Source of the DNA: an uncultured Xanthobacteraceae bacterium
GTDB taxonomy: Bacteria > Pseudomonadota > Alphaproteobacteria > Rhizobiales > Xanthobacteraceae
NCBI GenBank assembly: GCA_955652195.1
Contig: CATPBC010000028.1
Span: forward strand, 1 to 10,089
Direction of reading: 5' to 3'
DNA length: 10,089 nt
Made by a program: the position numbers and the translations under genes. The notes beneath the pieces were generated by a model. It saw only the letters and a list, made by a program, of their open reading frames with translations. It ran no database searches and was not told the origin of the DNA. Numbering within the stretch: the first letter of the stretch is position 1; each line of letters starts with the position of its first letter. Below are positions 238-8,233 of this stretch, in pieces.

Positions 238-311
238 CTAGTGCCGCGAACCCGAAGTTCGCCAGGTTCCTGAACGCTCCGATACGAACTTCGGGTTCAA
301 GACGGCACTAG
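238..311 (+). repeat. Palindromic CTAG-ended element 1 (left pair, forward polarity)
   Basis: 74 bp. The 9-bp ends CTAGTGCCG (238-246) and CGGCACTAG (303-311) are perfect inverted repeats. Inside them a second perfect 14-bp inverted repeat, GAACCCGAAGTTCG (248-261) and CGAACTTCGGGTTC (285-298), encloses a 23-nt loop. The spacer between end and inner stem is 1 nt on the left and 4 nt (AAGA) on the right. This asymmetry gives the element a direction, used here for the strand. Confidence 0.9.
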
Positions 312-325
312 CAAGGGTAGATTTG

Positions 326-398
326 CTAGTGTCCTTATCGATTCCGAAGTTCGTACAAGGTGCCGCACAGCTTACGAACTTCGGAATCGGGACACTAG
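326..398 (-). repeat. Palindromic CTAG-ended element 2 (left pair, reverse polarity)
   Basis: 73 bp. Ends CTAGTGTCC (326-334) and GGACACTAG (390-398) are perfect inverted repeats. The inner 16-bp stem GATTCCGAAGTTCGTA (340-355) pairs perfectly with 373-388 around a 17-nt loop. The spacers are 5 nt on the left and 1 nt on the right, the opposite of element 1, so it points the other way. It lies 14 nt from element 1. Confidence 0.9.
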
Positions 399-417
399 TG
401 GAAACCGCAGTTTCCAC
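398..417. repeat. Perfect 8-bp hairpin abutting element 2
   Basis: GTGGAAAC (398-405) and GTTTCCAC (410-417) are perfect complements around the 4-nt loop CGCA. The hairpin shares its first base with the last base of element 2, so CTAGTGG here also reads like the beginning of another CTAGTG element. No T-run follows, so it is not a standard terminator. It lies about 40 nt upstream of the zinc-protein gene and could sit in its 5' leader. Confidence 0.7.
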
Positions 418-456
418 GGGATATGGTGTTTGTCTTTCGCGCTGCCAATCAAGAAC

Positions 457-702
457 ATGACCGAGCATATCGTTCCGCATTTCCACAACGATGTCGGCGT
501 GGCCGAGATCGAGATCGGCGCCAAAGAGTTCATGTGCATCGGCGCCCTACCGCCGTTCGATCATCCGCACGTCTTCTGCGATATGGGCGACGACAACGAA
601 TACGTTTGCCCGTACTGTTCGACGCTCTATCGGTACAATCCGCAGCTCGCGCCCAATGAGGCGCGGCCGCCGGAATGCGCCCTGAAACGCGAAACGGTCT
701 AA
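457..702 (+). CDS. zf-CHCC zinc-finger domain protein (NDUFS6-like)
   Basis: An 81-residue protein of the zf-CHCC family, the bacterial relatives of the zinc subunit of mitochondrial complex I (NDUFS6). The candidate zinc ligands are Cys27, His36 or His38, Cys51 and Cys54, the last two forming CPYC. The sequence around them (FMCIGALPPFDHPHVF and DDNEYVCPYCSTLYRY) is typical of the family in Rhizobiales, and the length is normal. ATG 457 is chosen because family members usually begin MTEHIVPHF. An in-frame TTG at 430 would only add nine residues unlike the family. The ribosome binding site is weak (AAGA just upstream). Its stop lies 9 nt before the FAD monooxygenase start, so the two are very probably co-transcribed. 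The cellular role of bacterial stand-alone versions is not settled; zinc binding is the firm prediction. Confidence 0.9.
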   Translation: MTEHIVPHFHNDVGVAEIEIGAKEFMCIGALPPFDHPHVFCDMGDDNEYVCPYCSTLYRYNPQLAPNEARPPECALKRETV

Positions 703-711
703 CCAATTTCG

Positions 712-1929
712 ATGTCGCTGCCGTCCTCGCGTACTGTCATCGTCGCGGGCGCGGGAATCGGCGGCCTCACCGCCGCCCTGGCCTGCGCGCGCAATGGCTT
801 TCGCGCGCTGGTCCTTGAACAGGCCGAGCGTCTCGAAGAAACCGGCGCTGGGATCCAGCTTTCACCCAACGCAACCCGCATTCTGATTGGGCTCGGGCTC
901 GCCGAACGGTTGCGGCCGCATGTGGTGGCGCCGACCGCGATCCGCGTGCTTAGCGCGCGCAGCGCCCGGGAAATCGTGCGCATCCCGCTTGGCGAATATG
1001 CGGCGCAGCGTTACGGCGCACCCTATTGGATGATTCATCGCGGCGACCTGCAGGCGGCGTTAAGCGATGCAGCGGTGCAAGACCTCAACGTCGTGGTCCG
1101 GCTCGGCATGTGCATCGAGGATTTCGCCACGCATCCGCATGGCGTCACGATCTCGGCACGAGGCTCCGGCGGTCTATGGACTGAGCACGGCAACGCGCTG
1201 ATTGCGGCGGATGGCCTGTGGTCCGCCTCACGGGCGCGCATTGCGTCCAAAGATCCGCCGCGTTTTGCCGGCCGGACCGCCTGGCGCGCGCTGCTACCTG
1301 CGGCACAGGTTGCACCCGAATTCCGCGAACCACTCATCCATCTGTGGCTTGGGCGCAACGCGCATCTGGTTCACTATCCGGTCAAAGGCGGCAAGCTCAT
1401 CAATGTCGTCGTAATCACCGCAGACGATTGGAGTGGGCGGGGCTGGAGCGAAGCGGCAAGCCGGATCGATCTGTTGGCGCGGCTTTCGGACACGCGCTGG
1501 GCGCCCAACGCGCATTCTCTAATTCGCGCGCCGGAAGCTTGGCTGAAATGGGCGCTTTATCAGGCCCCGCCGCTTGCGAATTTCTGCCAAGGTGCGGCGG
1601 CGCTGCTTGGTGACGCCGCCCATGCGATGCTGCCGTTTCTGGCGCAAGGCGCGGCTATGGCCATCGAGGATGCCGCGGTGGCGGCGCAATGTCTCGCCCG
1701 CATGCCCGACAATCCGGCCGCCGCCTGGGAAACCTATTCCGCCGTCAGGCGTGGCCGCACCCGCAAGGTGCAGCGCTTGGCTGCGCGCAATGGCAACCGC
1801 TACCACCTCCCGGGTGTTGCGGCCATGTTCCGGAACACAGCCATGCGCCTAACCGGTGGCGAACGGCTCTTGCACCATTACGATTGGCTGTATGATTGGC
1901 GGCCGCCACCCGCTTTGTCGATCAGCTGA
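712..1929 (+). CDS. Class A FAD-dependent aromatic-type monooxygenase
   Basis: A 405-residue flavoprotein of the salicylate hydroxylase/UbiH type, expected to be cytosolic and to use NAD(P)H and O2 to hydroxylate a small, probably aromatic or quinone-like, substrate. All three family signatures are present: the N-terminal dinucleotide-binding GAGIGG (residues 13-18), the DGLWSASR motif binding FAD and NAD(P)H (D167-G168), and the C-terminal GDAAHAMLPFLAQG motif for the FAD ribityl chain (G300-D301). The IHR..L stretch at 108-113 also fits. Length is normal and no frameshift is visible. ATG 712 is the first start after the zinc protein and lies just ahead of the Rossmann strand. The substrate cannot be read from sequence. 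Salicylate-like hydroxylase, 6-hydroxynicotinate-type monooxygenase and a ubiquinone-pathway enzyme all remain possible. Confidence 0.88.
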   Translation: MSLPSSRTVIVAGAGIGGLTAALACARNGFRALVLEQAERLEETGAGIQLSPNATRILIGLGLAERLRPHVVAPTAIRVLSARSAREIVRIPLGEYAAQRYGAPYWMIHRGDLQAALSDAAVQDLNVVVRLGMCIEDFATHPHGVTISARGSGGLWTEHGNALIAADGLWSASRARIASKDPPRFAGRTAWRALLPAAQVAPEFREPLIHLWLGRNAHLVHYPVKGGKLINVVVITADDWSGRGWSEAASRIDLLARLSDTRWAPNAHSLIRAPEAWLKWALYQAPPLANFCQGAAALLGDAAHAMLPFLAQGAAMAIEDAAVAAQCLARMPDNPAAAWETYSAVRRGRTRKVQRLAARNGNRYHLPGVAAMFRNTAMRLTGGERLLHHYDWLYDWRPPPALSIS

Positions 1930-1979
1930 TCACGGCACCAGCGTCGATCCCGCAACCAACATCACGACGATTAGGCAAA

Positions 1980-3017
1980 ATGAGCATAGGCGAAACGCTG
2001 TTCCCGACGACGATTGCCGGCAGCTTGCCGAAGCCGGCGTGGCTTGCGGCGCCGCAGAAGCTGTGGGCGCCGTGGCGGATGGAGGGCGAAGAACTCACCG
2101 CCGCCAAGGATGACGCCACACTGCTCGCGCTGAAGATTCAGGAGGACGCAGGGATTGATATCGTCACCGACGGCGAGCAATCGCGCCAGCATTTCGTGCA
2201 TGGCTTTCTCGAGGCGGTCGAAGGCATCGATTTCGACAAGCGCGTCGAGATGGGCATTCGCAATGATCGCTACAAAGCGATGTGCCCGACCGTGGTCGGC
2301 CCATTACACTTGCGCGGGCGCGTGCATGCACGTGAGGCGCGGCTCGCCCGCGTGCATACCAGGAAAAAACTCAAATTCACCCTGCCTGGTCCGATGACCA
2401 TCGTCGATACGATCGCCGACGCCCATTACGGCGACCGGGTGAGGCTGGCCATGGCCTTCGCCGCGCTGCTCAATGACGAGGCGCGCGGGCTTGCCGCCGA
2501 TGGTGTCGACGTCATCCAGTTCGATGAGCCAGCCTTCAACGTCTACATGGAAGCCGCAGCCGGTTGGGGAATCGAGGCGCTGCACCGTGCGATCGAGGGC
2601 CTGACCTGCAAGACCGCCGTGCATATCTGTTACGGCTACGGCATTCCGGCAAACGTTCAATGGAAAGCGACGCTCGGCGCCGAATGGCGGCAGTACGAGC
2701 AGTTTTTTCCGGCATTGGCCGCGAGCCGGATCGATCAAGTGTCGTTGGAATGCATTCATTCGCATGTCCCGATGCACGTGCTCAAGTTGCTCCAGGGCAA
2801 GGACGTGTTGATCGGTGTGATCGACGTCGCCAGTGAAGAGATTGAAACGCCGAACGAGGTTGCGGCGGTGATCGCTGCGGCAACCGAATATGTTCCCATG
2901 CATCGGATTGTTCCGTGCACGAATTGCGGCATGGCGCCGATGCGCCGCGACATTGCGGCAGCGAAGCTCGGAGCACTCGCCCGCGGTGCAGCGCTAGCGC
3001 GCCGAAAGTTCGGCTGA
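1980..3017 (+). CDS. MetE-like cobalamin-independent methionine synthase, C-terminal-domain-only type
   Basis: A 345-residue protein matching only the catalytic, zinc-binding C-terminal domain of MetE. This domain activates homocysteine thiol for methyl transfer; the full-length enzyme is about 750 residues. Candidate zinc ligands are His215 and Cys217 (AVHICYGYG), Glu257 (VSLECIH) and Cys316 (TNCGM). The Glu-to-Cys spacing is close to that of E. coli MetE, whereas the His-to-Glu interval is about 18 residues longer. ATG 1980 is preferred over an in-frame ATG at 1896 inside the monooxygenase, because family members start close to LFPTTIAGSLPKP and TTAGG lies just upstream. It follows the monooxygenase by 50 nt and may share its transcript. 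The methyl donor is uncertain: core MetE proteins lacking the N-terminal domain may use methylcobalamin or another donor instead of methyltetrahydrofolate. Confidence 0.85.
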   Translation: MSIGETLFPTTIAGSLPKPAWLAAPQKLWAPWRMEGEELTAAKDDATLLALKIQEDAGIDIVTDGEQSRQHFVHGFLEAVEGIDFDKRVEMGIRNDRYKAMCPTVVGPLHLRGRVHAREARLARVHTRKKLKFTLPGPMTIVDTIADAHYGDRVRLAMAFAALLNDEARGLAADGVDVIQFDEPAFNVYMEAAAGWGIEALHRAIEGLTCKTAVHICYGYGIPANVQWKATLGAEWRQYEQFFPALAASRIDQVSLECIHSHVPMHVLKLLQGKDVLIGVIDVASEEIETPNEVAAVIAAATEYVPMHRIVPCTNCGMAPMRRDIAAAKLGALARGAALARRKFG

Positions 3018-3025
3018 GTAGCCCT

Positions 3026-3430
3026 TCAGCGCGCAGTTCCTTTTCGCTGCAGAATGCTGCGCATGACCTCCGCGTGGCTGAGATCGAGTTCACGCGTCGC
3101 GGTTAACAGCGTCGCCGCGCGGCCTTTGACCATGGCACGCAGCGCGCTCAGCTGCTCCGGCCGTTCCGCCAGCTCGGCCTTATAACGGCGGCGAAATTCC
3201 GCAAACCGCGCCGGATCGTGGCCATACCATTTGCGCAGCTCGGTCGATGGCGCAAGCTCGCGCGGCCAGGCATCGAGCTTGAGCTTGGTTTTCGATACGC
3301 CGCGCGGCCACAGCCGATCAATGAGAATACGCACGCCATCTTGCGGCATCGGGTTATCGTAAGCGCGCTTTATCGCGATTGATGACGATCGCCGCTTTGG
3401 GCGGGATGTGCGTGCGCCGCCCTTCGTCAT
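3026..3430 (-). CDS. DUF488 (YeaO-like) family protein
   Basis: A 134-residue protein of unknown biochemical function. The family core is recognisable: RAYD (residues 22-25), GVRILIDRLWPRG (32-44), WYGHDPARFAEFRRRY in the middle and a conserved LLTATRELDLSHAEV near the end. Residues 1-17 are an extra basic, serine-rich extension beyond the usual start near IAIKRAYD. No ATG, GTG or TTG lies between that extension and the core, so ATG 3430 is the only usable start. It overlaps the csoR stop as ATGA (3430-3427), indicating translational coupling. Its own stop lies 8 nt from the stop of the convergent MetE-like gene. Co-expression with csoR predicts that it is made under copper stress; that is inference from context. 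Confidence 0.85.
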   Translation of the reverse strand: MTKGGARTSRPKRRSSSIAIKRAYDNPMPQDGVRILIDRLWPRGVSKTKLKLDAWPRELAPSTELRKWYGHDPARFAEFRRRYKAELAERPEQLSALRAMVKGRAATLLTATRELDLSHAEVMRSILQRKGTAR

Positions 3431-3702
3431 CGCTGGCTACGCGCGATGACATCAATCAGCTCGGCGACTTTGCGGCGCTGCTCGCCCTTGTTGCCGGACG
3501 CGATCGCATTCTCGACGCAATGCGCCGCATGGTCGGCGAGAATTTTCTCTTCGGCGCGCCGCAATGCAGCGCGCACCGCCGAAAGCTGCGTCACAATATC
3601 GATGCAATAGCGGTCCTCATCGACCATGCGCGCAAGCCCGCGCACCTGTCCCTCGATCCGCCGCAAGCGTTTTAGCACCGAAGCCTTGGCAATGGTTCGC
3701 AT
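3427..3702 (-). CDS. csoR: CsoR-family copper-sensing transcriptional repressor
   Basis: A 91-residue all-alpha metal-sensing repressor of the CsoR/RcnR/FrmR family (DUF156). The start is typical ([13 protein letters not shown], residues 11-23). Metal ligands fit the Cu(I) CsoR pattern exactly: Cys33, His58 and Cys62, with spacings of 25 and 4 residues as in Mycobacterium tuberculosis CsoR (Cys36, His61, Cys65). The nickel sensor RcnR and formaldehyde sensor FrmR use different ligand sets, so copper is the best call. In the family, apo-protein binds a GC-rich palindrome and Cu(I) releases it. Here such an operator lies 9 nt upstream of its own start, between it and a divergent copper ATPase. 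ATG 3702 is the only sensible start, and the promoter predicts a nearly leaderless transcript. It overlaps the downstream DUF488 gene by 4 bases. Confidence 0.92.
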
Positions 3703-3714
3703 GCCGCTTATATA
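3686..3714 (+). promoter_or_regulatory. Sigma70-type promoter for the copper ATPase
   Basis: TTGGCA (3686-3691), a 17-nt spacer and TATATA (3709-3714) form a good housekeeping promoter. Transcription would start near 3721, giving a leader of about 30 nt before the ATPase ATG. The -35 box lies inside the 5' end of csoR. The -10 box overlaps the CsoR operator by four bases, so bound repressor would block it. Confidence 0.6.
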
Positions 3715-3737
3715 CCCCTACGGGGTATAGGTTTCAA
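3709..3737 (-). promoter_or_regulatory. Sigma70-type promoter for csoR-DUF488
   Basis: Read on the minus strand: TTGAAA (3737-3732), a 17-nt spacer and TATATA (3714-3709). The -10 box is the same six base pairs used by the plus-strand promoter, since TATATA is self-complementary. The expected start is at about 3702-3703, which is the csoR ATG, so the mRNA should be leaderless or nearly so. The operator fills the spacer and part of the -10 box. Confidence 0.55.
3711..3729. promoter_or_regulatory. CsoR operator palindrome
   Basis: TATACCCC (3711-3718) and GGGGTATA (3722-3729) are perfect inverted repeats separated by TAC. A C/G tract flanked by TA-rich ends is the established form of CsoR-family operators. 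It overlaps the shared -10 box and the expected ATPase transcription start, so one repressor assembly could silence both directions. Confidence 0.9.
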
Positions 3738-3750
3738 GGCAGTCCAGATC

Positions 3751-6048
<2,298 letters not shown>

Positions 6049-6079
6049 TGTTACCGCGCCGCAAGGTCTTTCTCGCTTT

Positions 6080-6110
6080 TTTGCCGTTTCACCTGTAGTT
6101 TGACGGCAAA
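6080..6110. other. Weak stem-loop after the copper ATPase gene
   Basis: TTTGCCGT (6080-6087) and ACGGCAAA (6103-6110) pair around a 15-nt loop, within the 96-nt gap between the ATPase and the MgtC-type gene. The T-run precedes the stem on the plus strand and only ATTTCC follows, so this is a poor terminator. It could be a leader structure or chance. Confidence 0.25.
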
Positions 6111-6144
6111 TTTCCGCTTTCTCCGTTCAGCTCGCGAACCCTTT

Positions 6145-7431
6145 ATGCCCACAGTGCCTTCACCAGTTAGCATCGCGCTGCTGCTCGGCTTGAGTTTTTT
6201 CCTCGGACTCGCTTTCGAAGATTTTTTCGCGCAGTCGACGCGGCGGCGGCCAGGCGGCATCCGCACCTTTCCGATGCTCGCGCTGGCGGGCGGGGTGCTT
6301 TATTTGCTCGATCCCGCTCACTTTGTTCCGTTCACCGCGGGCCTCGTCATCCTCGGCGCATGGCTGGTCATCTATTATCGGGCTTATGTCGGCGCCGCAG
6401 ATGAGCAAGGCGAACCGACGGCCGGAATCGTGGTGCTAATTCTCAACGTGCACGCGTATCTGCTCGGTGCGGTCGCGCTGGCGCTGCCGCCATGGATCGC
6501 GGTGACCATGACGGTGGTTTCGGTGTTGTTGCTCACCGGCAGGGAGCAACTTCATGCGCTGGCGCGGCGGCTCGACATCGGGGAAATTATCACCGCCGGC
6601 CAATTTTTGATCCTGACCGGCATCGTGCTGCCGCTGCTGCCGAACCAGCCAATCACGACGCTCACCCCAATCACGCCGCGCCAGGTCTGGCTCGCGCTCG
6701 TCGTGGTCTGCACGTTTTCCTATGTCAGCTATCTGGCGCAGCGCTATTGGGCGGCGGTAGCCGGCGGGCTCTGGATGGCGGCGCTCGGCGGCCTCTATTC
6801 GTCGACGGCGGCAACGGTCGTGCTCGCGCGGCAGGCGAAAGCCGAACCCGCGGTGCGGCGCCAGGCGCAAGCCGGCATCACAGTCGCAACGGCGATTATG
6901 TATTTGCGCATTCTGGCGATCATCGCGATCTTCGATCTAGCACTTGCGCGCGTGTTGCTCGTGCCGCTGGGCGCGCTTTCGCTTGCCGGTTTCGCATTCT
7001 GCGGGCTGCAATATCGCTTCGCCGCGGCACCAGACAAGCAATCGCCACAAGCCATGCATCTTGCCGCCAGCACCAATCCGCTCCAACTTGGCGCCGCCGC
7101 GATCTTTGCGGTGCTGTTCGTCGCCGTGTCGCTGATCTCGACGGTGGCCAAGTCGCAGTTCGGAATTTACGGCATCTATACACTGGCCGCCATTGTCGGT
7201 GTCTCGGATATCGATCCCTTCGTCCTCAACTTGGCGCAGGGCGGCGTGGCTGGGGCGACGAATGCCGCGCTCGCCGCCGCGATCCTGATCGCGGCGTCCT
7301 CGAACAATATTTTAAAGGCGATTTACGCAGCCAGCTTTGCCGGCGGCAGGGCGGCCGCGGCGAGCGCCGGCGCGCTCATCGCGCTTGCTGTCGCCGGATT
7401 CGCAGCCGCCTTCGCCGTCGCAACGTTGTAA
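6145..7431 (+). CDS. MgtC/SapB family membrane protein with C-terminal DUF4010 domain
   Basis: A 428-residue polytopic inner-membrane protein. The N-terminal part (residues 6-60) has the MgtC/SapB pattern: a glycine-rich first helix (IALLLGLSFFLGLAFEDFF), then a basic stretch and GGIRTFPMLALAG. About ten further hydrophobic segments follow, and the C-terminal half has DUF4010 features (the GGLYSSTAATVVLAR and GIYTLAAIVGVSDIDPF stretches). ATG 6145 is chosen because it starts just before the first helix. A TTG at 6100 would add 15 polar residues and has no ribosome binding site. No biochemical activity is established for the fusion; magnesium-related and envelope-stress roles known for MgtC proteins should not be carried over without test. 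It lies 96 nt downstream of the copper ATPase on the same strand, so read-through expression is possible. It converges on the lipoprotein gene with an 18-nt gap. Confidence 0.85.
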   Translation: MPTVPSPVSIALLLGLSFFLGLAFEDFFAQSTRRRPGGIRTFPMLALAGGVLYLLDPAHFVPFTAGLVILGAWLVIYYRAYVGAADEQGEPTAGIVVLILNVHAYLLGAVALALPPWIAVTMTVVSVLLLTGREQLHALARRLDIGEIITAGQFLILTGIVLPLLPNQPITTLTPITPRQVWLALVVVCTFSYVSYLAQRYWAAVAGGLWMAALGGLYSSTAATVVLARQAKAEPAVRRQAQAGITVATAIMYLRILAIIAIFDLALARVLLVPLGALSLAGFAFCGLQYRFAAAPDKQSPQAMHLAASTNPLQLGAAAIFAVLFVAVSLISTVAKSQFGIYGIYTLAAIVGVSDIDPFVLNLAQGGVAGATNAALAAAILIAASSNNILKAIYAASFAGGRAAAASAGALIALAVAGFAAAFAVATL

Positions 7432-7449
7432 CAAGAAGAAAGAAAAAGC

Positions 7450-7896
7450 TCAGCGCAGCGTCTGGTCGCTTTGCAGCGGCGACGCAAAGCTGCAGTTCTT
7501 TTCCGCGGCATTGCGCTGGAGAAGCTTTTGTTCGGCGATCACCGAATCGTATTCGCTGCGATAAGCCAGCGATCCGATCACCGACCCTGCCGCACTTTCA
7601 CTTGCCCTTTCCATGAGACCGCGCAGCTCGCTCTCGCGCGCAATCAGAGCTTTCCGCCGGGTCGCAAGATCGTCGCAGTGATAAAGCGTGTAGCGGCCCG
7701 GATCGATAAAGACCGCGCCGGCGCCATCGCTCCCGCAGCCGGCAAGGGGGACAAGCGCGAGAAGGGCCAAGCTCGACAGGACAAAGCTCGACAGCGCGCC
7801 GTACCATCGGCCGCGCGCCGGAGACGCGCGCGGCGCGCGCGCTCGCGGCCGGTCAATGGCGAGCCGATCATTGGCGAATTTGTCCCAGATAGTCAT
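7450..7896 (-). CDS. Small predicted lipoprotein of unknown function
   Basis: A 148-residue protein from ATG 7896. A long arginine-rich n-region (residues 1-32) precedes a hydrophobic core (LSSFVLSSLALLALVP) and the lipobox LAGC, with lipidated Cys54. The mature part (about 95 residues) includes YHCDDLATRRKALIARESELRGLM, a helical Lys/Arg/Glu-rich stretch, a small-residue segment (SAAGSVIGSLAYRSEY) and a late Cys in AEKNC. It would sit in the envelope, anchored by lipid. I recall similar short lipoproteins in Bradyrhizobium-type genomes but know no function. The start is uncertain: an in-frame ATG at 7998 would add 34 residues, giving an unlikely n-region of over 60. AAGG lies upstream of 7896 but rather far away. 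The stop faces the MgtC-type gene at 18 nt. Confidence 0.7.
   Translation of the reverse strand: MTIWDKFANDRLAIDRPRARAPRASPARGRWYGALSSFVLSSLALLALVPLAGCGSDGAGAVFIDPGRYTLYHCDDLATRRKALIARESELRGLMERASESAAGSVIGSLAYRSEYDSVIAEQKLLQRNAAEKNCSFASPLQSDQTLR
7769..7794. repeat. Short direct repeat inside the lipoprotein signal sequence
   Basis: AAGCTCGACAG occurs at 7769-7779 and again at 7784-7794, offset 15 bp, so the reading frame is kept. On the coding strand it gives the two LSS units in LSSFVLSSL, within the hydrophobic core. It may have arisen by slippage. Confidence 0.6.
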
Positions 7897-8067
7897 CGCA
7901 ACACGCGTCGCCTTACCCGCCCCGCGAATGCCGCTTGTGAATGCCAATTGTGAATGACATGAACTCTGTCGCAGCACCATGCGCCGCAAATGTGGCATGC
8001 CATGATGCCGCCCGGCACCCAGCAGATAGGTCCAAACGGCGAAGCCTCAGTCTAGCCATACGTGCCG

Positions 8068-8143
8068 CTAGTGTCCCGATTCCGAAATTCGCACGCTTTG
8101 TCGGCATGCTTTCATGCGAACTTCGGAATCAAAGGGACCCTAG
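8068..8143 (+). repeat. Palindromic CTAG-ended element 3 (right pair, forward polarity)
   Basis: 76 bp. Ends CTAGTGTCC (8068-8076) and GGACCCTAG (8135-8143) match with one mismatch. The inner stem GATTCCGAAATTCGCA (8078-8093) pairs with TGCGAACTTCGGAATC (8115-8130) with one mismatch, around a 21-nt loop. The spacers are 1 nt on the left and 4 nt (AAAG) on the right, the same polarity as element 1. Its outer parts closely resemble element 2 read in reverse. Confidence 0.9.
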
Positions 8144-8156
8144 CAAATATATAATC

Positions 8157-8233
8157 CTAGTGCGGTTTTTGGATTTGAAGTTCCTATGAGAGCTTCCGAC
8201 TGAACTGTAGGAACTTCAAATCCACCGCACTAG
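8157..8233 (-). repeat. Palindromic CTAG-ended element 4 (right pair, reverse polarity)
   Basis: 77 bp. Ends CTAGTGCGG (8157-8165) and CCGCACTAG (8225-8233) are perfect inverted repeats. The 16-bp inner stem GGATTTGAAGTTCCTA (8171-8186) pairs perfectly with 8208-8223 around a 21-nt loop. The spacers are 5 nt (TTTTT) on the left and 1 nt on the right, opposite to element 3. It lies 13 nt from element 3 and ends 50 nt before the membrane-protein ATG. Confidence 0.9.

What the first reader, a model, noticed from the sequence alone, without database searches (positions are those of the whole stretch)
238..8233. A family of CTAG-ended double palindromes whose arms co-vary
Four elements (238-311, 326-398, 8068-8143, 8157-8233) share one plan: 9-bp CTAGTG-type ends, a short spacer, a 14-16 bp inner stem around GAAGTTC, and a 17-23 nt loop. 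The stem sequences differ between elements (AACCC, ATTCC or GATTT next to the core; CCG, TCC or CGG in the ends), yet each change is matched on the opposite arm. The two imperfect positions are both in element 3. Matched changes mean that the folded or cruciform shape is kept, not just the sequence. Such shapes are known substrates for hairpin-recognising transposases such as RAYT proteins and IS200/IS605-type enzymes, but I cannot name this family with certainty and no such enzyme lies in the window.
Basis: partly seen in the sequence, partly recalled or inferred. Interest (0 to 1): 0.72.

Follow-up and report, generated by a model that had tools for sequence, protein, structure and literature searches.

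The report
Two-hairpin mobile repeats of IS630 type
The four palindromes are two copies of a small non-coding jumping element, built from two DNA hairpins, that is found in many alphaproteobacterial genomes and whose ends resemble those of a known kind of bacterial transposon, which suggests how such repeats move.

Summary
In detail: four covarying hairpins, none matched by shuffles. They are two copies of one ~165-bp composite: two hairpins in inverted orientation around a 13-14-nt spacer, CTAG at both ends. The own genome has 126 exact arms; relatives occur widely in Alphaproteobacteria. Over aligned copies 97-99% of stem cells pair; changes on both sides outnumber G-U intermediates 203 to 13. 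Some sites are empty in sister species.
Best reading: a MITE moved by IS630-family DDE transposases. The outer 24 nt match terminal repeats of one IS630 clade in sequence, spacing and asymmetry (one end with GANTC at positions 11-15, the other without). Each of 94 aligned hairpins has 2-5 extra nt on its inner arm, which should spoil it as an end. RAYT/IS200 enzymes fit poorly: 7 of 9 element-rich genomes tested had no match, though G013 had five.
Mobilisation is inferred. No genome was found with an intact IS630 whose ends equal those of its composites; 1 of 14 other element-bearing genomes in the class sample had a close transposase. CIR and Bru-RS repeats are the closest known kinds; their sequences could not be tested.

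The parts
238..398 (+). Composite 1 (161 bp): B-type hairpin + spacer + A-type hairpin, CTAG at both outer ends
238..311 (+). Hairpin 1, B-type end, stem class C (CCGCGAACCC); outer arm at its left
238..261 (+). Outer arm of composite 1, left: CTAGTGCCGCGAACCCGAAGTTCG, terminal-repeat-like; 19/24 identical to the left end of the Roseomonas IS630
299..302 (+). One-sided bulge (AAGA) on the inner arm of hairpin 1
312..325 (.). 14-nt spacer between the hairpins of composite 1
326..398 (-). Hairpin 2, A-type end; outer arm at its right
335..338 (+). One-sided bulge (TTAT) on the inner arm of hairpin 2
375..398 (-). Outer arm of composite 1, right: CTAGTGTCCCGATTCCGAAGTTCG; 22/24 with the Roseomonas IS630 right end, 20/24 with the G014 IS630 right end
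384..388 (-). GANTC (GATTC) at positions 11-15 of the A end
   Evidence: sequence; family counts
8068..8233 (+). Composite 2 (166 bp): A-type hairpin + spacer + B-type hairpin
8068..8143 (+). Hairpin 3, A-type end, with two mismatched pairs
8068..8091 (+). Outer arm of composite 2, left (A end): 21/24 with the Roseomonas IS630 right end
8078..8082 (+). GANTC (GATTC) at positions 11-15 of the A end
   Evidence: sequence
8131..8133 (+). One-sided bulge (AAA) on the inner arm of hairpin 3
8144..8156 (.). 13-nt spacer CAAATATATAATC (read A to B), like CAACTTTATGATT in other species
8157..8233 (-). Hairpin 4, B-type end (CGGTGGATTT); outer arm at its right
8166..8169 (+). One-sided bulge (T run) on the inner arm of hairpin 4
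8210..8233 (-). Outer arm of composite 2, right (B end): CTAGTGCGGTGGATTTGAAGTTCC; 16-17/24 with three IS630 left ends

Best explanation
The elements are two copies of a non-autonomous transposable element (MITE) of the IS630 / Tc1-mariner kind. Shown here: each copy is two hairpins in inverted orientation; both outer ends are CTAG; the outer 24 nt resemble terminal repeats of one IS630 clade; one end resembles the GANTC-bearing IS end and the other the opposite IS end; the inner arms are inverted copies of the outer arms with 2-5 nt inserted; copies sit at sites some of which are empty in sister species. Inferred: an IS630-family transposase supplied in trans binds the two outer arms, cuts there and pastes the composite at the TA of a CTAG target. 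The inner arms have the wrong spacing, so only the composite moves as a unit. The palindromes arose when each IS end was copied inversely next to itself; transposition keeps the outer arms, and either arm copying or a hairpin or double-binding-site function keeps the inner arms matched. The one test of host benefit that I could make (orthologous copies in Roseibium plasmids) showed none.
For: Copy number and spread. Composite architecture in 58 places of 50 of 112 loci. Extra nt on the inner arm in 94 of 94 aligned hairpins: 2-5. Covariation. Insertion: of 15 tested sites, J7 (L069:7849) aligns through the junction in four genomes with 4 nt in place of the element, J6 and J14 are empty with gaps near the junction, J8 and J9 give weaker gapped matches. 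IS630 ends: in the ten members with >=55% identity to the L228 transposase and a readable end, 16 of 19 ends match an outer-arm form at 13 or more of the 19 positions after CTAGTG (best of six forms), against a mode of 6 over 1811 CTAG sites; of 1333 CTAG sites not followed by TG, 37 reach 13, and these include the CTAGTC IS ends themselves. Roseomonas sp. KE2513 IS630 (L158:1321-2515) left end and Caulobacter ginsengisoli B end: 22/24. Roseibium plasmid composite A end and G160 IS630 right end: 23/24, both CTAGTCACC. Bradyrhizobium barranii IS630 (L464) has TGTCCCGAGTC at one end and TGTGGTGGACCAG at the other; of the 100 composite ends tabulated, 45 have TCC and 31 TGG after CTAGTG. GANTC at positions 11-15: composite A ends 43/49, B ends 2/51; IS630 C-terminal-side ends 21/26, other ends 1/26; 45 of 50 composites have exactly one such end, 5 none. 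Arm-like right ends: 9 of 10 such transposases form one clade, support 96/93. IS630 copies are themselves bounded by CTAG with unlike flanks. Literature: ISY100 mini-transposons with 30 bp of each end are as active as the full element and TA is duplicated (PMC2170065, abstract and passages); IS630 prefers TA in CTAG (title in its reference list).
Against: No genome was found holding composites and an intact IS630 with identical ends. In the class samples, of 14 element-bearing genomes besides the own one only G289 also had a transposase at E<=1e-90. In G059, G160 and G218, with several IS630 copies, a 23-nt end pattern found no hairpin: hits lie beside IS630 genes or lack an inverted copy within 180 nt (four of the loci examined in 126). 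The own genome has, at E<=1e-60, only a contig-end fragment of the clade, with right end CTAGTCACG. Of 10 plasmid IS630s read (of 444 records), 4 lack GANTC at both ends and 2 have it on the other side. TA duplication was not proven: empty sites are too diverged at the four target bases. Window B ends match the IS left ends only 16-19/24. Element-rich G013 does have Y1 transposases.
Confidence: 0.75

Rival explanations
1. Arm matching is mutational, not selected: one arm is repeatedly copied from the other by template switching at the quasi-palindrome, in a MITE otherwise as above. This explains covariation without any function of the hairpin.
For: Two-sided changes with almost no G-U intermediates (170 v 8 and 33 v 5 cells). 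A bulge-free perfect B hairpin in L387. Single 57-58-bp perfect palindromes in Acidisphaera and Limobrevibacterium.
Against: The one-sided bulge persists in 94 of 94 aligned hairpins (L387 is not among them), where copying should erase it. Within G000 56 of 95 deviating stem cells are broken, 20 are G-T and 19 compensated.
Confidence: 0.3
2. Host function at RNA level: transcribed hairpins act as terminators, stabilisers or processing sites and are kept by selection.
For: Strong folds. Stems vary less than loops within the genome (0.016-0.040 v 0.084-0.198 per base; arms not used for detection 0.010-0.027, placed by best match). Junctions lie in long open frames less often than random positions (named loci 32/51 v 88%; own genome 6/12 v 82%).
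Against: Very few G-U pairs. In 7 orthologous Roseibium/Labrenzia plasmid copies the element varies at 7/167 sites (stem 5/118) against 24/402 and 48/726 in the neighbouring genes, with no compensated change. No Rfam family at gathering threshold on the elements searched. Of 20 genus genomes 3 have no model match and 6 only 1-4.
Confidence: 0.1
3. REPIN-like elements moved as single-stranded hairpins by a Y1 transposase (RAYT or TnpA of IS200/IS605).
For: Inverted pairs of bulged hairpins with a short spacer resemble REPINs (recall). G013, with 147 model matches, has five Y1_Tnp matches. 6 of 37 inner feet in own loci read GTAG, the tag of one REP class.
Against: No Y1_Tnp match in 7 of 9 element-rich genomes of the genus that were tested. 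Arms match DDE-type IS630 terminal repeats. Stems of about 24 bp are far longer than REPs of 20-40 bp in all (start of the abstract of PMC3733652, search listing).
Confidence: 0.05
4. CcrM-linked regulatory repeats (CIR-type): kept because they place GANTC methylation sites, with mobility secondary.
For: GANTC at a fixed place in 43 of 49 A ends. CIRs are described as alphaproteobacterial, intergenic, two-armed with linker, TA at the termini (PMC2229807 passages).
Against: The same GANTC sits at the same place in many IS630 ends (21/26), so it may be inherited from the transposon end. B ends mostly lack it (2/51). Some sister species do without the elements.
Confidence: 0.08
5. Mobilised by an IS5-family element with CTAG/YTAR target preference rather than by IS630.
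For: An IS5-family element sits in an inner CTAG of a composite (L059); IS711 prefers Bru-RS repeats and YTAR (PMC2266754 passages).
Against: That IS has ends CTAGAACCTATCTC, unlike the arms. It uses the composite as a target.
Confidence: 0.03

Closest known systems
CIR elements (Caulobacter CcrM-associated intergenic repeats; Chen and Shapiro 2003, seen only through passages of PMC2229807 and PMC10969869)
   Same: Alphaproteobacterial, intergenic, two inverted-repeat arms joined by a linker, TA at termini, GANTC site; the 2007 review says more information is needed on the mechanism of mobility
   Different: About 110 bp against about 165 bp here (a 121-bp compact form exists in G278); GANTC said to be at or partly in a terminal loop, here in the stem at positions 11-15; listed there without terminal inverted repeats
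Bru-RS1/Bru-RS2 of Brucella (Halling and Bricker 1994, seen through passages of PMC2266754, PMC2267715 and PMC10800456)
   Same: Repeated palindromes in an alphaproteobacterium that are preferred insertion sites of IS711, whose target is YTAR
   Different: 103-106 bp; sequence not available to compare
RIME elements of rhizobia (title in a reference list only; details recalled)
   Same: Rhizobial intergenic mosaic with large palindromes (recall)
   Different: Sequence not available to compare
TA-ended bacterial MITEs such as RUP and Correia/NEMIS (PMC2229807 passages; the IS630 family of the RUP partner is recalled)
   Same: Small non-coding elements with TA at the termini; for RUP an IS transposase is proposed
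   Different: Those are described with one stem formed by 5' and 3' ends; here each end forms its own hairpin
REPINs / BIMEs with RAYT (recall; abstract starts)
   Same: Inverted pairs of bulged hairpins in intergenic DNA
   Different: Far longer arms, CTAG ends resembling IS630 repeats, no Y1 match in 7 of 9 element-rich genomes tested

Membership tests
IS630-type MITE | No transposase gene inside | tested here: met
   161-167 bp composites (one of 180 bp) without room for one
IS630-type MITE | Outer ends match terminal repeats of an IS630 element | tested here: met
   22-23/24 in the best pairs; window A ends 16-22/24, window B ends 16-19/24
IS630-type MITE | Same-genome autonomous partner with the same ends | tested here: not met
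   G289 is the only co-occurrence in the class samples and its end differs
IS630-type MITE | TA target duplication, CTAG preference | tested here: inconclusive
   CTAG at 35 of 43 outer ends in own loci (loci were partly fetched by a CTAG pattern); empty sites diverged at the four target bases
IS630-type MITE | Insertion polymorphism between relatives | tested here: met
   5 of 15 sites have cross-junction matches in sister species, J7 the cleanest
REPIN / RAYT system | Y1 transposase in the genome | tested here: not met
   no match in 7 of 9 element-rich genomes (some incomplete); five matches in G013, one sub-threshold in G006
REPIN / RAYT system | GTAG/CGTC tag at the foot of short REPs | tested here: not met
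   outer feet are CTAG within a ~24-bp stem; 1 of 43 outer and 6 of 37 inner feet in own loci read GTAG
CIR | Two stem-loops with linker, TA termini, alphaproteobacteria | tested here: met
CIR | Sequence identity to CIR1-4 of Caulobacter crescentus | not testable with these tools
   source paper not held; a named C. crescentus genome could not be searched with a DNA or RNA query
CIR | GANTC in a terminal loop | tested here: not met
   GANTC at positions 11-15 of the stem in 43 of 49 A ends; loops were not counted for GANTC
Bru-RS | 103-106-bp Brucella sequence | not tested
   sequences not available; two Brucella loci (L115, L163) hold relatives of the present family
Rfam RNA family | Covariance model match | tested here: not met
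   no hit on the elements of the window or of five other loci

The most novel reading that the evidence does not exclude
A class-wide MITE superfamily in which each IS630 end was turned into its own hairpin by an inverted, mis-spaced second copy. The mis-spaced arm would be a decoy or loading site for the transposase that prevents single-hairpin excision. The GANTC at only one end would tie mobility to CcrM methylation and so to the cell cycle. CIR and perhaps Bru-RS repeats would be members, which would explain why CIRs carry CcrM sites.
Probability: 0.15. Interest if true: 0.75.

Novelty: new variant of a known kind. Interest (0 to 1): 0.5.

Why it matters
For CIR repeats of alphaproteobacteria a 2007 review leaves the mechanism of mobility open (PMC2229807 passages), and my nine literature searches listed no mover for CIR, Bru-RS or RIME repeats. 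End-by-end agreement of a look-alike family with one IS630 clade gives a named enzyme to test, a reason for the CTAG ends, and a plain origin for the GANTC site. The family also offers a large natural data set on covarying DNA palindromes that are probably not RNA.

Tried and rejected
RAYT/IS200 as mover: PF01797 search, disfavoured, with G013 as an exception. IS5-family element in L059 as partner: its ends differ, it is an inserted passenger. IS630 of C84 (L028) as partner: ends CTAGAGC, unlike the arms, merely inserted in an outer CTAG. Presence on plasmids: composite 2 of the window matched only Roseibium/Labrenzia (8 records; a ninth through its flanks); three other composites gave no match. 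Bradyrhizobium empty site of L157: in 24 of 50 matching genomes the match stops at the junction (query 110-111), but in the 30 loci looked at the right flank resumes homology, where it does, mostly some 60-90 nt further on, so no duplication could be read. A first open-frame test was confounded by stops in the element itself (0/42) and replaced by a junction test. Order-level relatives with single pattern hits (G036-G038) are at control level and not counted as family members. Literature: 9 searches; their listings showed no paper joining CIR, RIME or Bru-RS to IS630; most subscription journals are not in that library.
Full report
WHAT IS THERE. The four palindromes are at the stated coordinates and fold far better than shuffles (z -5.5 to -10.9, 0 of 200 shuffles each). 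They form two composites: 238-398 (161 bp) and 8068-8233 (166 bp). In each, two ~75-nt hairpins stand in inverted orientation around a 13-14-nt spacer. Each hairpin has an outer arm without a bulge and an inner arm with 3-5 extra nt; the bulged sides face the spacer. In 21 listed composites (20 distinct places) of the own genome the flanks beyond the terminal CTAGs are unlike, except where two elements abut.

THE FAMILY. In the own genome (3.3 Mb draft, 85% complete) 126 exact arms were found against 3 for a reversed control pattern. A covariance model gave 142 matches at E<=1e-5; 150 candidates were scored and one palindrome can match on both strands (seen), so this is not a hairpin count. 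I saw 75 distinct hairpins in the stretches fetched. In the genus 17 of 20 genomes have at least one match, from 1 to 150; three have none. Composites or hairpins of the family were seen in, among others, Bradyrhizobium, Afipia, Nitrobacter, Mesorhizobium, Brucella, Devosia, Caulobacter, Phenylobacterium, Asticcacaulis, Paramagnetospirillum, Acidisphaera and Hyphomicrobium. With the model, 15 of 240 genomes of the class (own included) had matches under stricter filters. Variants: triple hairpins (L115, L204, L211), a compact 121-bp form with 4-nt loops in G278, single perfect 57-58-bp palindromes without bulge in Acidisphaera and Limobrevibacterium, elements sharing one CTAG (C16, C32, C71).

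COVARIATION. Of 112 loci, 50 (58 places) passed the rules for both ends of a composite; I did not sort the other 62, some of which are cut by locus ends, degenerate, or IS630 ends. From one composite per locus I aligned 44 of 51 B-type and 46 of 49 A-type hairpins (I left out ten, mostly near-duplicates) plus the window's four. B-type: 96.7% of 1146 cells pair, 170 cells changed on both sides, 8 on one side, score 0.403 against 0.141 in shuffles and at most 0.107 when slid. A-type: 99.1% of 1058, 33 against 5, 0.112 against 0.039 in shuffles and at most 0.051 when slid. One measure, further pair types, did not exceed shuffles for B-type (438 of 500 as high). Scarcity of G-U argues for DNA-level symmetry. 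Within the own genome (75 hairpins, 71 classed) stems differ from their class consensus at 1.6-4.0% and loops at 8.4-19.8% of positions; detection was conditioned on the outer arm, but arms not used for detection differ at only 1.0-2.7% (best placement). Of the 95 stem cells that deviate, 19 are compensated, 20 are G-T and 56 broken, so single copies decay.

MOBILITY. Fifteen of the own-genome sites were searched as joined flanks in 20 genomes of the genus. Five gave matches across the junction in sister species: J7 cleanly, J6 and J14 with gaps near the junction, J8 and J9 more weakly. The listing was cut, so nothing is claimed about the other ten. At J7 (L069:7849) four genomes align through the site with four bases where the element would add 161. 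The target bases themselves have diverged, so the duplication length is not proven.

THE IS630 LINK. Transposases of one IS630 group (NF033545, DDE_3; three of them scanned), found by protein search except L158 and L195, which came by the DNA pattern, often have ends of the form CTAGT[GC]NNN[CT]GANTCnGAAGTTCG with the spacing of the composites' outer arms. In the ten members with >=55% identity to L228 and a readable end, 16 of 19 ends reach 13 or more of 19 scored positions. L254 was dropped for want of a readable pair of ends. Best pairs: Roseomonas IS630 right end and window right end 22/24; its left end and the Caulobacter ginsengisoli B end 22/24; G160 IS630 right end and a Roseibium plasmid composite 23/24, both with the rarer CTAGTCACC start. 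The B. barranii IS630 combines TGTCCCGAGTC at one end with TGTGGTGGACCAG at the other, like composite A and B ends; its extent is supported by matches of about 1214 bp in other Bradyrhizobium plasmids. GANTC stands at positions 11-15 in 43/49 A ends and 2/51 B ends, in 21/26 transposase-C-terminal-side IS ends and 1/26 opposite ends (26 unique IS with repeat match >=14/28 and length 1120-1210, others dropped). In ten plasmid IS630s (of 444 records) the picture is weaker: exactly one GANTC end in 6, of which 2 on the other side, and none in 4. On a tree of 28 transposases, 9 of the 10 with arm-like right ends form one clade (96/93); the tenth, L220, falls in its sister group. Inner arms differ from outer ones by 2-5 extra nt in 94 of 94 aligned hairpins, which breaks the terminal-repeat spacing.

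MECHANISM AND DOUBT. The simplest account is trans-mobilisation by IS630-group transposases, consistent with ISY100, where 30 bp of each end suffice and TA is duplicated (PMC2170065, abstract and passages). I could not find a genome with an intact partner having exactly the ends of its composites. Only G289 of 14 other element-bearing class genomes had a close transposase, with a related but not identical end. In CTAGTC-ended IS630 genomes the end pattern found no hairpins. The own genome shows one fragment of the clade with a different end. So the link is by homology of ends, not by co-occurrence. Y1 transposases (RAYT/IS200) are absent at E<=1e-3 from seven of nine element-rich genus genomes tested but present in G013. 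Why the arms stay matched is open: arm-to-arm copying, double binding sites, or hairpins in a transposition intermediate.

HOST ROLE. In 7 of 9 available Roseibium/Labrenzia plasmid orthologues the element is about as variable as its neighbouring genes (7/167 against 24/402 and 48/726) and shows no compensated change. This speaks against strong host selection on that copy; it is one locus.

KNOWN KINDS. CIR repeats share the plan (two arms, linker, TA termini, GANTC, alphaproteobacteria) but are described as ~110 bp with GANTC at a loop. Bru-RS repeats share the role of insertion hot spot for an IS with YTAR target. Neither sequence could be tested. Rfam has no match on the elements searched.

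Noticed in passing
L059 (G000:C231) 2047-2884: An IS5-family element (NF033580) with ends CTAGAACCTATCTC sits in the inner CTAG of a composite, recalling IS711 in Bru-RS repeats.
   Followed up: partly
L028 (G000:C84) 1-1044: An IS630 element with different ends (CTAGAGC...) sits flush against a composite, sharing its CTAG; L220 (G006) shows the same with another IS630 beside a B hairpin.
   Followed up: partly
L157:5173-5176 and L452:2164-2167: The terminal CTAG of the composite supplies the TAG stop codon of the neighbouring gene: in Bradyrhizobium pachyrhizi (frame inferred from sister genomes) and in a Roseibium plasmid (annotated gene).
   Followed up: no
L019, right flank (G000:C59 about 4353-4432): A second, unrelated palindromic repeat (GCATGATCCCGAAAAGTGGGAACCGGTTTTCGGACAAGATCATGC) with many matches across the genus.
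   Followed up: no
L115, L204, L211: Composites with a third hairpin in the middle; the L115 middle arm (CTAGTGGATTGAATTTGACGTTTG) resembles ends of another IS630 subgroup (CTAGTGGATTGATTCCAATGTTTG in L261).
   Followed up: no
L195: IS630 of this clade on a contig labelled Planctomycetota MAG (label seen): transfer or binning error.
   Followed up: no
window 3427-7431: Metal locus: metal-sensing repressor (PF02583), P-type ATPase with YHS and HMBD domains, DUF4010 protein, lying between the two composites.
   Followed up: no
L142 3231-3651: speF leader and alphaproteobacterial sRNA ar45 next to each other in Afipia massiliensis.
   Followed up: no
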